From Mycobacterium sp. ITM-2016-00317 (GTDB lineage: Bacteria; Actinomycetota; Actinomycetes; Mycobacteriales; Mycobacteriaceae), in the NCBI RefSeq assembly GCF_002968295.1, contig NZ_CP134399.1, positions 744,001-808,000 of the forward strand: a stretch of 64,000 bases of DNA, written 5' to 3'. The notes beneath the pieces were generated by a model, which ran no database searches, was not told the origin of the DNA, and saw only the letters and a program-made list of their open reading frames with translations. The translations under genes were made by a program, and so were the position numbers. Shown piece after piece: positions 1-6,003 of this stretch. The stretch's first letter is position 1. Every line of letters begins with the position of its first letter.

Positions 1-894
1 TTCGCCACCGTCGACCCGGCGGTGCAGGTCAGCGGCCGGTTCCAGCTGTCCGACGGCCAGACCGTCGGGGTGGCCGCACCGATCATCCTGCAGTTCGACG
101 CGTCGATCCCCGAGGAGGCCCGCGCCGAGGTGGAGAAGGCCGTCAAGGTCACCACCACTCCCGAGGTCGAGGGCAGCTGGGCCTGGTTGCCCGACGAGGC
201 CGCCGGGTCGCGCGCGCACTGGCGGACCAAGGAGTACTACCCGGCCGGCACCACCGTGCACGTGGACGCGAACCTCTACGGCGTGCCGTTCGGCGACGGC
301 GCCTACGGCGCCACGGACTCGACGCTGGACTTCACGGTGGGCCGCTATCAGCTGGTCAAGGCCGACGCCCCCAGCCACCGCATCCAGGTGCTCAACGACA
401 CGGGCGTGATCATGGACTTCCCGTGCAGCTACGGCGAGGGCGACCTGGACCGCAATGTCACCCGCAGCGGGATCCACGTGGTCACCGAGAAGTACGAGGA
501 CTTCTACATGACCAACCCCGCGGCCGGCTACGCCAACAGCCATCAGCGGTTCGCGGTGCGGATCTCCAACAACGGCGAGTTCATCCACGCCAACCCGGCC
601 AGCGCGGGCGCCCAGGGCAACAGCAACGTGACCAACGGGTGCATCAACCTGTCCCCGGCCGACGCCGAGCAGTACTTCAACACCGCGATCTACGGCGATC
701 CGGTCGAGGTGACGGGCACCCGCCTGCAGCTGTCCTACTCCGACGGCGACATCTGGGACTGGACCGTGCCGTGGGACGAGTGGTCGGCGATGTCGGCGTT
801 GTCGTCCGAGGCGAGCCCCGACGGCATCCCCAGCACCGCGCCCGCGACGCCGTCGGACGCGCCGCAGCAGGTCAACGGCCGCCCCGGCGGTTAG
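1..894 (+). CDS. lprQ: L,D-transpeptidase, LprQ/LdtMt5-like, 5' end outside window
   Basis: The frame is open from base 1, so the start, signal peptide and lipobox lie to the left. About 297 residues remain: an Ig-like domain, then a YkuD catalytic domain with [12 protein letters not shown] and the nucleophile in TNGCINLS (Cys codon 640-642). The protein ends in a Pro/Ser/Ala-rich tail, as known for LdtMt5. These enzymes make 3-3 peptidoglycan crosslinks outside the membrane and are carbapenem targets. The usual SHGC reads TNGC here, so the motif histidine is Asn. The next gene is convergent and its stop begins 2 nt beyond this one. The Rv0483 position supports the name. Confidence 0.88.
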
Positions 895-895
895 G

Positions 896-1654
896 TCAGC
901 TCTGCCGGTGGAAGCGCGAGCCGCTGGCGCCGGACACCTGGTCACGCGGGCGGACCACGATCAGGTCCAGGTCGACGTGCGACGGGCGGCTGGCGACGAA
1001 CCCGATCACCTCGGCGATGTCCTCGGCGACCAGCGGGGTGACGCCCTGGTACACCTTGTCGGCGCGCTCGGCGTCCCCCTCGAAGCGGTTCAGCGAGAAT
1101 TCGGTCTTGACCATGCCGGGGGCGACCTCGGTCAGCCGCACCGGTTGTCCGAGCAGCTCGCTGCGCAGGGTCCGGTGCAGCACACCCTGGGCGTGCTTGG
1201 CACTCGTGTAGCCGGCGCCGTTGTCGTAGATCTCCACGGCCGCGATCGAGGTGACCGTGACGATCAGACCGTCGCCGGAGTCGATCAGCTTGGGCAGCAA
1301 CGCGCGGGTCACGTGCAAGGTGCCCAGCACGTTGGCCTCCCACATCCACCGCCAGTGGTCGACGTCGGCGTCGGCGACCGACTCCAGTCCGCGCGCGCCG
1401 CCGGCGTTGTTGACCAGGACGTCGACCCGGTCCAGGCGTCCGGCCAGGGCCGCCACGGCCGTCGGGTCAGTGACATCCGCCACAATCGCGGTGCCGTCCA
1501 ACTCAGCCGCCAGCGCCTGGATGGGGGCTTCTCGGCGGGCCACGCAGATAACGTGAAAGCCTTGTGCGGCAAGGGTTCTCGCTGTTGCTTCGCCGATCCC
1601 GGCACTGGCTCCGGTGACCACCGCGACCCGGCGCGCATCTGTTGGTGTCGTCAT
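896..1654 (-). CDS. Short-chain dehydrogenase/reductase (Rv0484c-like)
   Basis: A 252-aa classical SDR. The Rossmann motif TGASAGIG lies near residues 15-22, NNAGG near 80-85, and the catalytic YTSAKHA (Y-x3-K) near 150. Substrate is unknown; the family are NAD(P)H-dependent alcohol/ketone oxidoreductases. The ATG at 1654 is chosen because the dinucleotide-binding strand begins right after it. It is divergent from the ROK regulator unit and convergent with the transpeptidase, as in M. tuberculosis. Confidence 0.9.
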   Translation of the reverse strand: MTTPTDARRVAVVTGASAGIGEATARTLAAQGFHVICVARREAPIQALAAELDGTAIVADVTDPTAVAALAGRLDRVDVLVNNAGGARGLESVADADVDHWRWMWEANVLGTLHVTRALLPKLIDSGDGLIVTVTSIAAVEIYDNGAGYTSAKHAQGVLHRTLRSELLGQPVRLTEVAPGMVKTEFSLNRFEGDAERADKVYQGVTPLVAEDIAEVIGFVASRPSHVDLDLIVVRPRDQVSGASGSRFHRQS

Positions 1655-1706
1655 GAGTCCAACCCTAGGCCCACCGAATTGACCTTCGCGCGCGCCCGCA
1701 AAGCCG

Positions 1707-1722
1707 TGCTAAGTTGACCGCG
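1707..1722 (+). promoter_or_regulatory. Extended -10 promoter for leaderless transcript
   Basis: The hexamer TAAGTT (1710-1715) fits the mycobacterial TANNNT -10 consensus and has TG one base before it (1707-1708), an extended -10. A start site about 7 nt downstream falls on the GTG at 1722, so the transcript would begin with the initiation codon of the cysteine-rich reading frame. No good -35 is visible, which is common for extended -10 promoters. Confidence 0.5.
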
Positions 1723-1796
1723 TGTACCGGAATAGTCAGGCAGTCCTCGCTGCCGCGCGGCGTGCGTGTTGTTGTTGCGCACATCGCCGCGCCTGA
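1722..1796 (+). CDS. Poly-cysteine leaderless uORF (putative cysteine attenuator)
   Basis: GTG start, TGA stop, 24 residues: MYRNSQAVLAAARRA, then CCCC, then AHRRA. Codons 16-19 are TGT TGT TGT TGC. There is no Shine-Dalgarno; an extended -10 sits so that the mRNA would start at the GTG. Leaderless poly-Cys uORFs that attenuate downstream genes in response to cysteine are established in mycobacteria. The next gene begins 83 nt later (ROK regulator, then mshA). Mycothiol contains cysteine, so feedback from cysteine supply is a natural role (inference). The Cys codons form the loop of a small hairpin. Confidence 0.7.
   Translation: MYRNSQAVLAAARRACCCCAHRRA
1762..1782 (+). promoter_or_regulatory. 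Hairpin with the Cys codons in its loop
   Basis: GTGCG (1762-1766) pairs with CGCAC (1778-1782). The 11-nt loop holds three Cys codons and part of the fourth. A ribosome stalled for cysteinyl-tRNA would keep this stem open, so it could act as the sensing half of an attenuator. The stem is only 5 bp, so this is suggestive only. Confidence 0.35.
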
Positions 1797-1826
1797 CTGC
1801 GCCCGGACTTCTGATCTAGTCCTGCT

Positions 1827-1863
1827 GAGTCGCCAGGTGTGGCCCGACCCCACCACCCGACTC
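1827..1863 (+). promoter_or_regulatory. Stem-loop between uORF and ROK regulator
   Basis: GAGTCG (1827-1832) pairs with CGACTC (1858-1863). An inner GGTGTGG (about 1836-1842) pairs with CCCCACC with one mismatch around the loop CCCGA. It lies after the uORF stop and just before the AAAGGA Shine-Dalgarno (1867-1872) of the GTG at 1880. There is no U-tract, so it is more likely a translational or Rho-linked element than an intrinsic terminator. Confidence 0.4.
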
Positions 1864-1879
1864 GCCAAAGGACCCTTCC

Positions 1880-3204
1880 GTGAGCACTCCCACCGTCGCC
1901 CTCGCTCAGCGCCCCCGCACCGCTTCGGCCAAGCGCGTCAAGCCGGCCGTCAAGCCCGCGACCACCACCCCGGGCAGCCGCTACCCGCAGGCACTGCTGC
2001 ACCACATCGTCGCGCCGTCGCTGCGCGTGCCTGAGGCCGCCGCCGCGTCGGTGTTCGCCGCCGCCCGCCAGCGTGGGCCGATCGCCCGCGACGTCATCGC
2101 GCAGGTCACCGGCCTCAGCATCGCGACGGTGAACCGCCAGGTCACCGCCCTGCTCGACGCCGGACTGCTGCGGGAACGCGCCGACCTGGCGGTGTCCGGG
2201 GCGATCGGCCGGCCCCGGGTGCCGGTCGAGATCAACCACGAACCGTTCCTGACGCTGGGCATCCACATCGGTGCCCGGGTCACCAGCATCGTCGCCGCCG
2301 ACCTGTTCGGCCGCACGCTCGACGTCGTCGAGACCCCCACCCCGCACGGCCCGCAGGCCGCCGCGCTGACCGCGATCGCCGGCAGCGCGCGCCGCTACCT
2401 GAGCCGCTGGCACCGCCGCCGCCCGCTGTGGGTCGGGGTGGCCACCGGCGGCGTCGTCGACAGTGCCACCGGCTATCTCGACCATCCCCGGCTCGGCTGG
2501 TCGGACGCACCGGTCGGCCCGGTGCTCGCCGAAGCCCTCGGGCTCCCGGTGTCGGTGGCCTCGCATGTGGACGCGATGGCCGGTGCAGAACTGCTGCTCG
2601 GGGTGCGCCGCCGGCCACCAAGGCGGCCACCAGCCTGTATGTGTATGCCCGCGAAACCGTCGGCTACGCGCTGTCGATCGGCGGCCAGGTGCACTCCCCG
2701 GCCAGTGGACCCGGCACCATCGCGGGTCTGCCCGCGTTCTCCGAACTCCTCGGTGGCACAGGCAAATTGGAATCCACGGTGAGCGACGAGGCGGTGCTCA
2801 GCGCGGCGCGCAAGGCGCACATCGTGCCCGCCGACGGCCCGGGATCGACGGTCACCGCGGTGCTGCGCGCGGCGCGGCAGGGCAACGAGCAGGCCGCAGC
2901 GCTGGTCGCCGAACGCGCGCGGGTGCTCGGCGAGGCCGTGGCGCTGTTGCGCGACATGCTCAACCCGGACGACCTCGTGGTCGGCGGGCAGGCATTCACC
3001 GAGTATCCGGAGGGCATGTCGATCGTCGAGTCGGCGTTCGCCGCCCGGTCGGCGCTGCCGCCCCGCGACATCCGGGTGACGGCGTTCGGCAACCGGATCC
3101 AGGAGGCCGGCGCGGGCATCGTGTCCCTGAGCGGGCTGTACGCCGATCCGATCGGCGCGATGCGGCGCGCGCTCGCGTCGCGCAGGCCCGAAGTCAGTGC
3201 CTGA
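1880..3204 (+). pseudogene. ROK-family transcriptional regulator (Rv0485-like), frameshifted
   Basis: The first half reads from GTG 1880 (AAAGGA 8 nt before it): a winged helix-turn-helix (residues about 40-110, GLSIATVNRQV) and the start of a ROK ATPase-like fold. Near 2605-2625 the frame is lost. Conserved sequence resumes one frame over from about 2618 (SLYVYARETVGYALSIGG) and runs to a TGA at 3202-3204. Adding one base, for example a third C in the CCGCC run, restores continuity. It is either an error or a recent null allele. mshA starts 36 nt later on the same strand, so the two are probably cotranscribed. Confidence 0.85.
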
Positions 3205-3240
3205 GAAAGGTCGCCGAGGGCGCGGTGTAGACATGACGGT

Positions 3241-4563
3241 GTGCGTCTAGCGTCCGAGCCGGCTGGCTCGCCTTCCGTACTGCCCCAGCCGCGCCGGGTG
3301 GCGGTGCTCTCGGTGCACACGTCGCCGCTGGCCCAGCCGGGCACCGGTGATGCCGGCGGGATGAACGTCTACGTGCTGCAGACCGCGCTGGAGCTGGCCG
3401 CCCGCGGTGTCGACGTGGAGATCTTCACCAGGGCCACCTCGTCGGCCGACCAGCCGGTGGTTCCGGTGGCGCCAGGGGTGCTGGTGCGCAACGTGGTGGC
3501 GGGCCCGTTCGAGGGACTGGACAAGAACGATCTGCCCACCCAGCTGTGCGCGTTCACCGCCGGGGTGCTGCGCGCGGAGGCCACCCACGAACCCGGCTAC
3601 TACGACGTCGTGCACTCCCATTACTGGTTGTCTGGCCAGGTGGGCTGGTTGGCCGCCGACCGGTGGGCGGTGCCGCTGGTGCACACCGCCCACACCCTGG
3701 CCGCGGTCAAGAACGCGTCACTGGCGGCCGGGGACACCCCGGAGCCGCCGATGCGCTCGATCGGCGAGCAGCAGGTGGTCGACGAAGCCGACCGGTTGAT
3801 CGTCAACACCGAACACGAAGCCCGCCAACTGGTCTCGCTGCACGGAGCGGACCCGGACCGGATCGACGTGGTGCACCCCGGCGTCGATCTCAAGACCTTC
3901 ACTCCAGGCGACCGCGCGGCCGCCCGCGCGGCCCTCGGCCTGGACGCCGACGCGCAGATCGTCGCGTTCGTCGGCCGGATCCAACCGCTCAAGGCCCCCG
4001 ACGTGTTGCTGCGCGCGGCGGCCCTGCTGCCCGGTGTGCAGGTCGTCATCGCGGGCGGGCCGTCCGGGTCCGGTCTGGCCACCCCGGACAACCTCGTGCA
4101 CCTGGCCGCGGAACTGGGTATCACCGACCGGGTGACCTTCCTGCCGCCGCAGGCGCGCGACGACCTGGTCCGGGTCTACCGGGCCGCCGACGTGATCGCG
4201 GTGCCCAGCTACTCCGAGTCCTTCGGCCTGGTGGCCGTCGAGGCCCAGGCGTGCGGGACGCCGGTGGTGGCGGCCGCCGTCGGCGGACTCCCGGTCGCGG
4301 TGCGCGACGGCGTCACCGGCGCGCTGGTCGACGGGCACGACCCGCAGGCATGGGCGTCGACGCTGGCCCGGGTGCTGGCCGCCGACGCGGAGGCGATGAG
4401 CCGCGCCGCGGTCGCCCACGCCGCCACGTTCTCCTGGGCACACACCGTCGACGCGCTGCTGACCGGCTACGGGCGCGCGATCGCCGACTACCGCGCCCAG
4501 CACCAGCTGTCGTCCCCACGCAGTGGCCGGCGGTTCTCGATACGCAGAGGAGTCCGGGTATGA
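3241..4563 (+). CDS. mshA: D-inositol-3-phosphate glycosyltransferase MshA
   Basis: A 440-aa GT-B retaining glycosyltransferase (GT4). It transfers GlcNAc from UDP-GlcNAc to 1-L-myo-inositol 1-phosphate, the first committed step of mycothiol synthesis in the cytoplasm. Visible marks are the N-terminal [10 protein letters not shown] substrate loop, HSHYWLSG, the [12 protein letters not shown] linker, and the E-x7-E signature in [23 protein letters not shown] start at 3241. Its stop overlaps the next start as ATGA (4560-4563), indicating translational coupling. The poly-Cys uORF lies about 1.5 kb upstream in the same unit. Confidence 0.96.
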
Positions 4564-5099
4564 GTGGCGATGAGCCGCTTGCGCGAAGAGCAGACAGCAC
4601 AGCAGCCGTCCGGGACCTCATAGAGCGGACGCTCAAGGAGCACGACCTCGAGTACAGCCACCACGACGGGGCGGCCGGCGGGCTGCCCGGGCTGGTGGTC
4701 GCGCTGCCCGGGGAACGCAAGCTCAAGACCAACACCATGCTGTCCGTCGGCGAGCACTCGGTGCGCGTCGAGGCGTTCGTGTGCCGCAGGCCCGACGAGA
4801 ACCACGAGGGCGTCTACCGGTTCCTGCTCAAACGCAACCGCAGGCTCTACGGCGTCGCCTACACCCTCGACAACGTCGGCGACATCTACCTCGTCGGCCG
4901 GATGGCCCTGGCCTCGGTCACCCCCGACGAGATCGACCGCGTGCTGGGGCAGGTGCTCGAGGCGGTGGACTCAGACTTCAACACGTTGCTGGAGTTGGGT
5001 TTTCGCACCTCCATCCAGAAGGAGTGGGAGTGGCGGGTCTCGCGCGGCGAGTCGCTGCAGAACCTGGCGGCGTTCGAGCATCTCATCGGCGACGACTGA
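4560..5099 (+). CDS. YbjN domain-containing protein (Rv0487-like)
   Basis: A 179-aa cytoplasmic protein with the YbjN fold, which resembles type III secretion chaperones. It has the conserved [15 protein letters not shown] strand-helix and the acidic C-terminal half typical of the mycobacterial family. The biochemical role is unknown. ATG at 4560 overlaps the mshA stop, and gpmA begins 24 nt after its stop, so it sits inside the mshA-gpmA unit. Confidence 0.85.
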
Positions 5100-5123
5100 A
5101 CCCTTCCGTGAGAGGATCAGGAA

Positions 5124-5876
5124 ATGGCAGATACCGCGACGCTGATCCTGCTCCGCCACGGTGAGAGCGAGTGGAACGCGCTGAACCTGTTCACCGGCTG
5201 GGTCGACGTCGACCTCACCGACAAGGGCAGGGCCGAAGCGGCGCGCGCCGGCGAACTCATCAAGGCCCAGGACCGCCTTCCTGACGTGCTGTACACCTCG
5301 CTGCTGCGCCGGGCCATCACCACCGCCAACATCGCTCTCGACAAAGCCGACCGGCACTGGATCCCGGTGCACCGCGACTGGCGCCTCAACGAGCGCCACT
5401 ACGGCGCGCTGCAGGGCCTCAACAAGGCTGAGACGAAAGAGAAGTACGGCGAGGAACAGTTCATGGCGTGGCGCCGCAGCTACGACACCCCGCCGCCACC
5501 CATCGAGGCGGGCAGCGAGTTCAGCCAGGACCGCGATCCCCGCTACGCCTTCATCCCCGGCGGCGCTCCGCTCACCGAATGCCTCAAGGACGTGGTCGAG
5601 CGGTTCGTCCCGTACTTCACCGAGGTGATCGTTCCTGACCTGAAGGCGGGCAAGACCGTGCTGATCGCCGCGCACGGCAATTCGCTGCGCGCGTTGGTCA
5701 AGCACCTCGACGGCATGTCCGACGAGGATGTGGTCGGCCTGAACATCCCGACCGGCATCCCGTTGCGCTACGACCTCGACGAGAACCTCGCGCCGACGGT
5801 CAAGGGTGGCAGCTACCTCGACCCGGAGGCCGCGGCCGCCGGGGCTGCGGCGGTGGCCGCGCAGGGCGCCAAGTAG
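5124..5876 (+). CDS. gpmA: 2,3-bisphosphoglycerate-dependent phosphoglycerate mutase
   Basis: A 250-aa glycolytic/gluconeogenic enzyme interconverting 3- and 2-phosphoglycerate. It has the phosphohistidine motif [10 protein letters not shown] at residues 7-16, [15 protein letters not shown], and the second catalytic histidine in AAHGNSLRA. Length matches the family. The Shine-Dalgarno GAGAGGAT lies 6 nt before ATG 5124. It is last in the mshA unit; senX3 follows after 139 nt that carry its own signals. Confidence 0.97.
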
Positions 5877-5892
5877 GGCGATCCCGGCAGCC

Positions 5893-5911
5893 GGGCGAAC
5901 GCCGGGTGAAC
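5893..5911 (+). promoter_or_regulatory. Putative RegX3 box upstream of senX3
   Basis: Two direct repeats, GGGCGAAC (5893-5900) and GGGTGAAC (5904-5911), place GAAC at exactly 11 bp spacing, the geometry used by PhoB/OmpR-type regulators. RegX3 is known to autoregulate senX3-regX3. The same arrangement recurs upstream of pit at 53236-53251. Confidence 0.55.
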
Positions 5912-6003
5912 AGCGCGGGGCGTGGGACCGAACATCGGTCTCCGACTTTGTGACATGTCCAGTTTTGGCCGTTTGCCGCTGGGATGACGTTCACTGATAT
6001 GCG

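What the first reader, a model, noticed from the sequence alone, without database searches (positions are those of the whole stretch)
1722..1796. Leaderless poly-cysteine uORF ahead of the ROK regulator-mshA unit
A 24-codon frame starts on a GTG placed 7 nt after an extended -10 (TGCTAAGTT) and contains four Cys codons in a row, 83 nt before the regulator that precedes mshA. Leaderless poly-Cys uORFs are established cysteine attenuators in mycobacteria. A link to the first mycothiol glycosyltransferase would couple thiol-buffer synthesis to cysteine supply, which I do not know to have been described.
Basis: partly seen in the sequence, partly recalled or inferred. Interest (0 to 1): 0.85.

Follow-up and report, generated by a model that had tools for sequence, protein, structure and literature searches.

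The report
Cysteine-sensing leader of a sulphur-type regulator
A tiny cysteine-rich reading frame in front of a regulatory gene in a mycobacterium is real and kept by evolution, was already reported in two relatives, and most likely lets cysteine shortage switch on that regulator rather than directly control the neighbouring mycothiol gene.

Summary
The uORF is real: GTG 1722 to stop 1796, six bases after an extended -10. A -10, leaderless start and Cys-rich frame stand there in 137 of 140 loci (window's own included; the misses are contig ends); a stricter detector finds 135 of 137, against 0 of 1196 random segments. It is not new: Shell et al. 2015 (PMC4633059, Fig 7B) list a Cys-enriched leaderless small ORF before Rv0485/Msmeg_0932. 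The mshA link is weak. The frame follows ROK: among 18 mshA loci without an intact ROK, 17 lack it. mshA has its own leaderless-promoter-like block, with intact ROK (122 of 132) or without (17 of 18). Outside the genus, ROK homologues have a leaderless Cys-bearing uORF in 38 of 40 loci (23 of 25 genera sampled); taurine or sulfonate-type genes lie nearby in 9 of 19 stretches, so ROK may be a CysR/SsuR-like sulphur regulator. Conserved alternative pairings could expose the ROK ribosome site when ribosomes stall on Cys; equilibrium folding did not show that switch. Best reading: a cysteine-sensing attenuator of the regulator. Residual novelty: the non-mycobacterial leader with a conserved peptide (dN/dS 0.19; no NCBIfam or Pfam match).

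The parts
1707..1715 (+). extended -10 (TGC TAAGTT) of the presumed leaderless transcript
   Evidence: sequence; TGNTANNNT before the uORF in 135 of 137 loci, TANNNT alone in the other 2
1722..1796 (+). leaderless uORF, 24 codons, VYRNSQAVLAAARRACCCCAHRRA*
1767..1778 (+). four Cys codons TGT TGT TGT TGC, the presumed sensor
   Evidence: TGT makes up 358 of 472 Cys codons of 107 distinct uORFs against 9 of 42 in the ROK frames
1755..1762 (+). segment 1, GCGCGGCG, pairs with 1785-1792 in the free leader
   Evidence: MFE fold; inference for its role
1786..1793 (+). segment 2, GCCGCGCC, last bases before the stop; can pair with 1836-1843
   Evidence: RNAalifold and pair counts, 98.3% of cells paired against 30-55% when slid
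1805..1808 (+). GGAC, look-alike of the Shine-Dalgarno core, possible competitor for the anti-SD
   Evidence: sequence; inference
1819..1823 (+). anti-SD GTCCT, can pair with the ROK Shine-Dalgarno
   Evidence: pair counts, 91.2% of cells in this helix
1836..1843 (+). segment 3, GGTGTGGC, nearly invariant; alternative partner of segment 2 or of CCACC 1850-1854
1850..1873 (+). segment 4: CCACC (1850-1854), CGACT (1858-1862) and the Shine-Dalgarno AAAGGAC (1867-1873) of ROK
1880..2782 (+). ROK regulator (Rv0485 family), N-terminal frame; the frame breaks near 2600
   Evidence: PF00480 28.3 bits, cut-off 22.9; ORF list
2614..3204 (+). C-terminal piece of ROK in another frame
   Evidence: ORF 2428-3204; used as a separate query
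3226..3240 (+). TGTAGACAT + 6 nt, own leaderless-promoter-like block of mshA
   Evidence: block and RTG in 122 of 132 loci with ROK and 17 of 18 without intact ROK; 68 of 2800 random segments (pattern drawn up)
3241..4563 (+). mshA, glycosyltransferase of mycothiol synthesis
896..1654 (-). divergent SDR gene on the other side of the promoter region
   Evidence: adh_short

Best explanation
A leaderless mRNA starts at 1722 and the first thing translated is a short frame ending in Cys codons. When charged tRNA-Cys is scarce, the ribosome stalls on 1767-1778, covers segment 1 and leaves segment 2 (the last codons of the frame) free; segment 2 pairs with segment 3 and keeps segments 3/4 from closing over the ROK ribosome-binding site, so the ROK regulator is made. 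When cysteine is plentiful the ribosome runs to the stop, covers segment 2, segments 3/4 close and the Shine-Dalgarno is hidden. The target is the ROK protein, which I take to be a CysR/SsuR-like regulator of sulphur acquisition. mshA downstream is transcribed mainly from its own promoter and feels cysteine at most indirectly. Shown here: anatomy, conservation, absence of the uORF where ROK is lost, a promoter-like block of mshA's own, conserved pairing, sulphur-type gene context in other genera. Inferred: transcription start, stalling, the switch, the regulator's role.
For: uORF with -10 and Cys in 137 of 140 loci, 135 of 137 by the strict detector, 0 of 1196 and 0 of 685 in controls. TGT, the less used Cys codon in the ROK frames, preferred. 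Helix 2:3: 98.3% of 696 cells paired, 2 to 4 of 500 shuffles as high, slides 30-55%. Helices 3:4: 88.7% of 1213 cells, slides 27-48%. ROK Shine-Dalgarno less accessible than with shuffled spacers (mean unpaired 0.26 against 0.38, 118 leaders). Transcript cut just after segment 3: P(2:3) 0.31 free, 0.64 stalled; above 0.5 in 25 and 58 of 87 leaders. uORF absent where ROK is lost. Sulphur-type genes near ROK outside the genus in 9 of 19 stretches. CysR and SsuR are ROK-type sulphur regulators (PMC2580772, abstract and passages). High 5'UTR-to-CDS signal at the orthologous gene in M. marinum and M. bovis (PMC4128351, section 9).
Against: Equilibrium folding with ribosome footprints shows no change at the Shine-Dalgarno: mean unpaired 0.26 stalled and 0.26 at stop; 6 of 118 leaders rise by more than 0.2 and 5 fall; the window's own leader gives 0.20 or 0.42 stalled (first Cys codon in the A or P site) and 0.30 at stop. 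In full-length leaders 2:3 is weak even when stalled (0.11), so the switch would have to be co-transcriptional. The stop-state value of 2:3 is zero by construction. Covariation is thin: 2:3 has 2 cells changed on both sides; for 3:4, 372 of 500 shuffles reach the number of pair types, 46 of 500 the covariation score, and some slid versions have more two-sided changes. Own-versus-permuted segment partners: 504 of 5000 permutations as high for all 118 leaders, 134 of 5000 for the 29 from L113-L142, 4280 of 5000 for the 89 from L003-L112; a narrower window gave 18, 4 and 1652 of 2000. Orthology of this ROK to C. glutamicum CysR was not tested by sequence, and its binding motif (TGAAtnnAAt) was not searched for. 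No expression data for the window's organism; in the window ROK itself has a broken frame.
Confidence: 0.66

Rival explanations
1. The uORF couples cysteine supply to mycothiol by controlling mshA on a ROK-mshA transcript.
For: ROK stop to mshA start is 36 nt in the window and mostly under 100 nt in 132 loci, with extrapolated starts, so readthrough is plausible. mshA lies in the fetched stretch around ROK in 9 of 19 loci of other genera.
Against: mshA keeps its own TGTAGACAT/TGTAAAGAT-type block before an RTG with or without intact ROK. The uORF is missing in 17 of 18 mshA loci without intact ROK, on several branches. mshC of the same genome has no Cys-run leaderless frame in the roughly 780 nt fetched upstream. 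Only 1 of 19 non-mycobacterial stretches (L308) has mshA directly after ROK.
Confidence: 0.15
2. The leader works by premature transcription termination (Rho-dependent or intrinsic) governed by uORF translation, not by hiding the ribosome site.
For: Orthologues in M. marinum and M. [quoted passage not shown] ribosome masking did not toggle the Shine-Dalgarno at equilibrium.
Against: No intrinsic-terminator-like site between the uORF stop and ROK in the scan of 1600-3400; its 3 hits overlap one another inside the uORF, where the T-rich tail is the Cys codons. The Shine-Dalgarno pairing is conserved. Rho sites were not tested.
Confidence: 0.27
3. The peptide itself acts, as a small protein or an arrest peptide.
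For: Outside the genus the block RVTYVTxALGxRLPxxRxLC is under amino-acid-level constraint (33 of 38 uORFs, median dN/dS 0.19, third-position entropy 1.14 against 0.40 and 0.37).
Against: In the mycobacterial frames of 24 codons dN/dS is 0.80 with like entropy at the three positions (32 distinct). Part of the outside conservation (VTYVT) coincides with GTCAC-N4-GTGAC, present in 25 of the 33 block rows.
Confidence: 0.12
4. Chance open frame.
For: None beyond shortness.
Against: Controls 0 of 1196 and 0 of 685; 137 of 140 loci.
Confidence: 0.01

Closest known systems
Conserved Cys-enriched leaderless uORF of Rv0485/Msmeg_0932 (Shell et al. 2015, PMC4633059; passages and the legend of Fig 7 seen)
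   Same: Same locus, leaderless, Cys-enriched, conserved between M. tuberculosis and M. smegmatis
   Different: In the passages seen the function is left as speculation and mshA is not mentioned; the peptide letters are in a figure that I could not see
Poly-Cys leaderless attenuators of M. smegmatis (Canestrari et al. 2020; paper not held, title and use seen only in papers that cite it)
   Same: Leaderless start, Cys run, presumed cysteine-dependent stalling that frees a downstream gene
   Different: Whether this locus is among those it tested could not be checked; no cysteine response is shown here
Ms5788A family Cys-rich leader (NCBIfam NF042933)
   Same: Cys-rich leader; a member with leaderless geometry lies elsewhere in this genome (L239)
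   Different: The uORF of this finding does not match the model
CysR and SsuR of Corynebacterium glutamicum (PMC2580772; abstract, one section and passages seen)
   Same: ROK-type regulators, of sulphur acquisition
   Different: cysR and ssuR of C. glutamicum are leaderless themselves (start of transcription = start of translation), so have no uORF; orthology not tested

Membership tests
poly-Cys leaderless attenuator | start codon directly downstream of a -10 (leaderless geometry) | tested here: met
   TAAGTT + 6 nt + GTG; kept in 137 of 140 loci; geometry only, no TSS data
poly-Cys leaderless attenuator | run of Cys codons near the end of a short frame, conserved | tested here: met
   longest run 3 or more in 123 of 137
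poly-Cys leaderless attenuator | alternative RNA pairing that hides the downstream ribosome site unless a ribosome stalls | tested here: inconclusive
   pairings conserved, partial-transcript support, no toggle at equilibrium
poly-Cys leaderless attenuator | cysteine-responsive expression of the downstream gene | not testable with these tools
   needs expression data
poly-Cys leaderless attenuator | downstream gene belongs to sulphur or cysteine metabolism | tested here: inconclusive
   indirect: taurine, sulfonate or dimethylsulfone-type genes near ROK homologues in 9 of 19 stretches
NCBIfam Ms5788A leader / cis_reg_atten | match to NF042933 or NF042934 | tested here: not met
   no hit at E 10
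CysR/SsuR-type sulphur regulator | ROK domain with HTH | tested here: met
   PF00480 and HTH_24 above their cut-offs
CysR/SsuR-type sulphur regulator | sequence orthology to C. glutamicum CysR/SsuR | not tested
   no reference sequence fetched
intrinsic-terminator attenuator | terminator hairpin with U-run between uORF and gene | tested here: not met
   none after the uORF stop in the scan of 1600-3400

The most novel reading that the evidence does not exclude
A family-wide cysteine sensor: in Mycobacterium and in 23 of the 25 other genera sampled, a leaderless Cys-bearing uORF gates one ROK regulator of sulphur acquisition. Outside Mycobacterium (19 genera) it encodes a conserved, possibly ribosome-arresting peptide (RVTYVTxALGxRLPxxRxLC); in Mycobacterium the peptide was given up for a bare Cys run plus RNA pairing. 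Rv0485 would then be the mycobacterial CysR-like sulphur regulator, and mshA its neighbour, not the target of the leader.
Probability: 0.45. Interest if true: 0.68.

Novelty: new member of a known kind. Interest (0 to 1): 0.45.

Why it matters
It moves the question from mycothiol to the regulator. A cysteine-gated ROK protein offers a testable candidate for a sulphur regulator in mycobacteria, and would explain why the leader is found with ROK and not without it. The non-mycobacterial leader, with a conserved peptide and no match in NCBIfam or Pfam (4 such peptides tried, 3 of them), allows a comparison of two ways to read cysteine supply at one gene.

Tried and rejected
Rejected: mshA as main target. 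Rejected: chance frame. Not supported: equilibrium ribosome-masking switch; covariation by permuting partners (weaker than the first run with a narrower window). No Rfam family in 1-6000 at gathering scores. No promoter by the sigma-70 scan of 1600-3400, which asks for a -35 too. The first uORF scan missed loci on the minus strand because such loci are not turned; redone oriented. RNAalifold finds only helix 2:3; 3:4 was named by me from the window's fold and counted, which favours it. Other genera: (450 nt upstream, -10 and Cys, no motif) gives 34 of 40 loci; (650 nt, longer frames allowed, frames with LG.RLP or CRMCC preferred) gives 38 of 40; no shuffle control was run for these looser rules. 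The queries for sulphur genes came from L298, L307 and L311 themselves, so those three stretches match themselves. Genera g3 to g5, with weaker ROK hits (1e-19 to 1e-40), were not sampled for the uORF. Literature: ten searches used; no title, abstract start or passage that I saw links this uORF to mshA or describes the RVTYVT peptide, but the library is open-access only, most listed papers were not opened and supplements could not be read.

Full report
The observation. The frame 1722-1796 reads VYRNSQAVLAAARRACCCCAHRRA*. Upstream lie TGC at 1707-1709 and TAAGTT at 1710-1715, then six bases, then GTG. The ROK gene starts at 1880 with AAAGGAC at 1867-1873, 83 nt after the uORF stop. A divergent SDR gene begins at 1654 and mshA at 3241. 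The window is one stretch of a single-contig genome of 6.06 Mb.

Conservation. The N-terminal part of ROK (window 1880-2602) found 274 of 297 genomes of the genus and 80 named loci (best 80 of 302). I examined 140 loci, the window's own among them: 30 best, 80, 30 of a hand-picked low-identity set. In 137 a short Cys-rich frame follows a TANNNT at leaderless distance; the three misses (L086, L092, L140) have under 65 nt before the match. A few of the 137 are poor (L070 has no two adjacent Cys; L138 and L139 are weak). With a stricter detector the count is 135 of 137, 123 with CCC, against 0 of 1196 random segments and 0 of 685 shuffles. Some loci are the same strains; 107 distinct uORFs remain. 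Cys codons are TGT in 358 of 472 cases, against 9 of 42 in the ROK frames.

Prior art. Shell et al. 2015 (PMC4633059; passages and Fig 7 legend) describe conserved leaderless small ORFs upstream of cysA2, Rv0485/Msmeg_0932 and nirA, enriched in cysteine. Canestrari et al. 2020 on poly-Cys attenuators is not held. PMC9094748 (passages) cites it for the prediction that six M. tuberculosis ORFs respond to cysteine; PMC13236596 (passages) cites it for translation attenuation of cysteine genes. PMC4128351 (section 9 read) reports high 5'UTR-to-CDS ratios for the Rv0485 orthologues of M. marinum and M. bovis. So the mycobacterial feature is known; its function at this locus was left open in what I could read.

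Does it serve mshA? Of the 23 genomes without a ROK match, the 20 listed were searched for mshA: 18 have it at E 1e-60. In 17 of these 18 loci no -10-positioned Cys-rich frame stands in the upstream sequence held. Two of the 17 (L157, L158) hold decayed ROK pieces, so are decay rather than clean loss; L153 keeps a remnant of the Cys tract and of the ROK end. L159, where the N-terminal part of ROK is missing, keeps the uORF. On a quick mshA tree of 148 rows the 17 rows without intact ROK need 11 changes; well-supported branches force at least 3, and 76 of 144 inner branches are open. Just before mshA a block TGTAGACAT, TGTAAAGAT or a near variant sits 3-9 nt from an RTG in 122 of 132 loci with ROK and 17 of 18 without intact ROK, against 68 of 2800 random segments. 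I drew the pattern up after seeing the sequences. In some species it overlaps the ROK stop codon. This reads as a leaderless promoter of mshA, with the same six-base spacing in the window as the uORF's. The block departs from TANNNT, so the promoter call is an inference. mshC of the same genome has no Cys-run leaderless frame in the roughly 780 nt fetched upstream.

Outside the genus. ROK homologues were found in 176 of 201 family genomes, 29 of 31 genera, at E 1e-15; weak hits may be paralogues. I took 40 non-Mycobacterium loci of 25 genera, chosen for spread among the places listed. A Cys-bearing leaderless uORF is seen in 34 of 40 without any motif and in 38 of 40, 23 genera, when a longer stretch, longer frames and the LG.RLP motif are allowed (none in L261 and L282). 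33 of the 38, in 19 genera, share a 20-residue block RVTYVTAALG[SC]RLPLARELC. Median dN/dS of that block is 0.19 over 517 usable of 528 pairs; third positions vary most. The mycobacterial frames of 24 codons give 0.80. Within the block VTYVT is written GTCAC-N4-GTGAC in 25 of 33 rows, which could be an operator or a hairpin. No NCBIfam or Pfam model matched the peptides tried (8, 6), except that NCBIfam places the leader at L239 in the Ms5788A family.

What the regulator may do. In 19 stretches of about 16-17 kb around ROK in 18 other genera, TauD-like genes occur in 6 and SsuD/SfnG/SfnB-like genes in 3 others, 9 of 19 together; mshA occurs in 9 of 19, directly after ROK only in L308; 5 of 19 have neither. 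One of these five (L303) has a 31% SfnB-like hit that I did not count. Three of the nine supplied the queries. By NCBIfam, SfnG passes its cut-off in 2 of 2 proteins and SfnB in 1 of 2; the SsuD-like and TauD-like proteins score below the curated cut-offs, so these names are family-level. CysR and SsuR of C. glutamicum are ROK-type regulators of sulphate and sulphonate use (PMC2580772; abstract and passages). That Rv0485 is of this kind is an inference from context.

Mechanism. In an alignment of 87 of 118 distinct leaders, RNAalifold gives one helix: GCCGCGCC (window 1786-1793) with GGUGUGGC (1836-1843). 98.3% of 696 cells pair, slid versions 30-55%; only 2 cells, at 2 pairs, show changes on both sides. 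The competing hairpin with the Shine-Dalgarno pairs in 88.7% of 1213 cells, slid 27-48%; its covariation does not stand out from shuffles or slides. Cys codons lie between segments 1 and 2, so a ribosome with its A site at the first Cys codon, taken to cover 13 nt before to 14 nt after the first base of the P codon, would cover 1755-1762 and spare 1786-1793. On transcripts ending just after segment 3 the 2:3 helix has mean probability 0.31 free and 0.64 stalled; on full leaders 0.07 and 0.11. Shine-Dalgarno access does not differ between stalled and stop states at equilibrium. A co-transcriptional switch fits these figures; they do not prove it.

Verdict. A real, conserved, already reported leaderless Cys uORF; best read as a cysteine-sensing attenuator of a sulphur-type ROK regulator. 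The mshA coupling is the weak part of the finding. New, as far as these searches go, are the absence of the uORF where ROK is lost, the independent promoter-like block of mshA, and the conserved-peptide version of the leader in other genera.

Noticed in passing
window 1880-3204: The ROK frame is broken near 2600: ORF 1880-2782 and its continuation in another frame, 2428-3204. Relatives mostly have one open frame of about 420-540 codons. Real frameshift or sequencing error; not mended.
   Followed up: partly
window 3226-3243: Own leaderless-promoter-like block of mshA, same six-base spacing to GTG as the uORF.
   Followed up: yes
L143, between the SDR start and mshA: The mshA block TGTAGACATGAC occurs three times in tandem in this ROK-less genome.
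   Followed up: no
L239:335 (genome contig C1 near 4971042): Another leaderless Cys-rich leader in the same genome, NCBIfam Ms5788A family (VSARLELLLTKRRAVDLCRVAGCCCCCCSC).
   Followed up: partly
L250-L288, uORFs: GTCAC-N4-GTGAC inverted repeat within the VTYVT codons of non-mycobacterial leaders (26 of 38 uORFs); operator or hairpin.
   Followed up: partly
L295, L300, L304, L311: A TauD-like gene stands divergent from, and near, the ROK gene in several genera.
   Followed up: partly
G107:C34:36208 and 293826: Two ROK matches of equal score in opposite orientation on one contig; duplication or assembly artefact.
   Followed up: no
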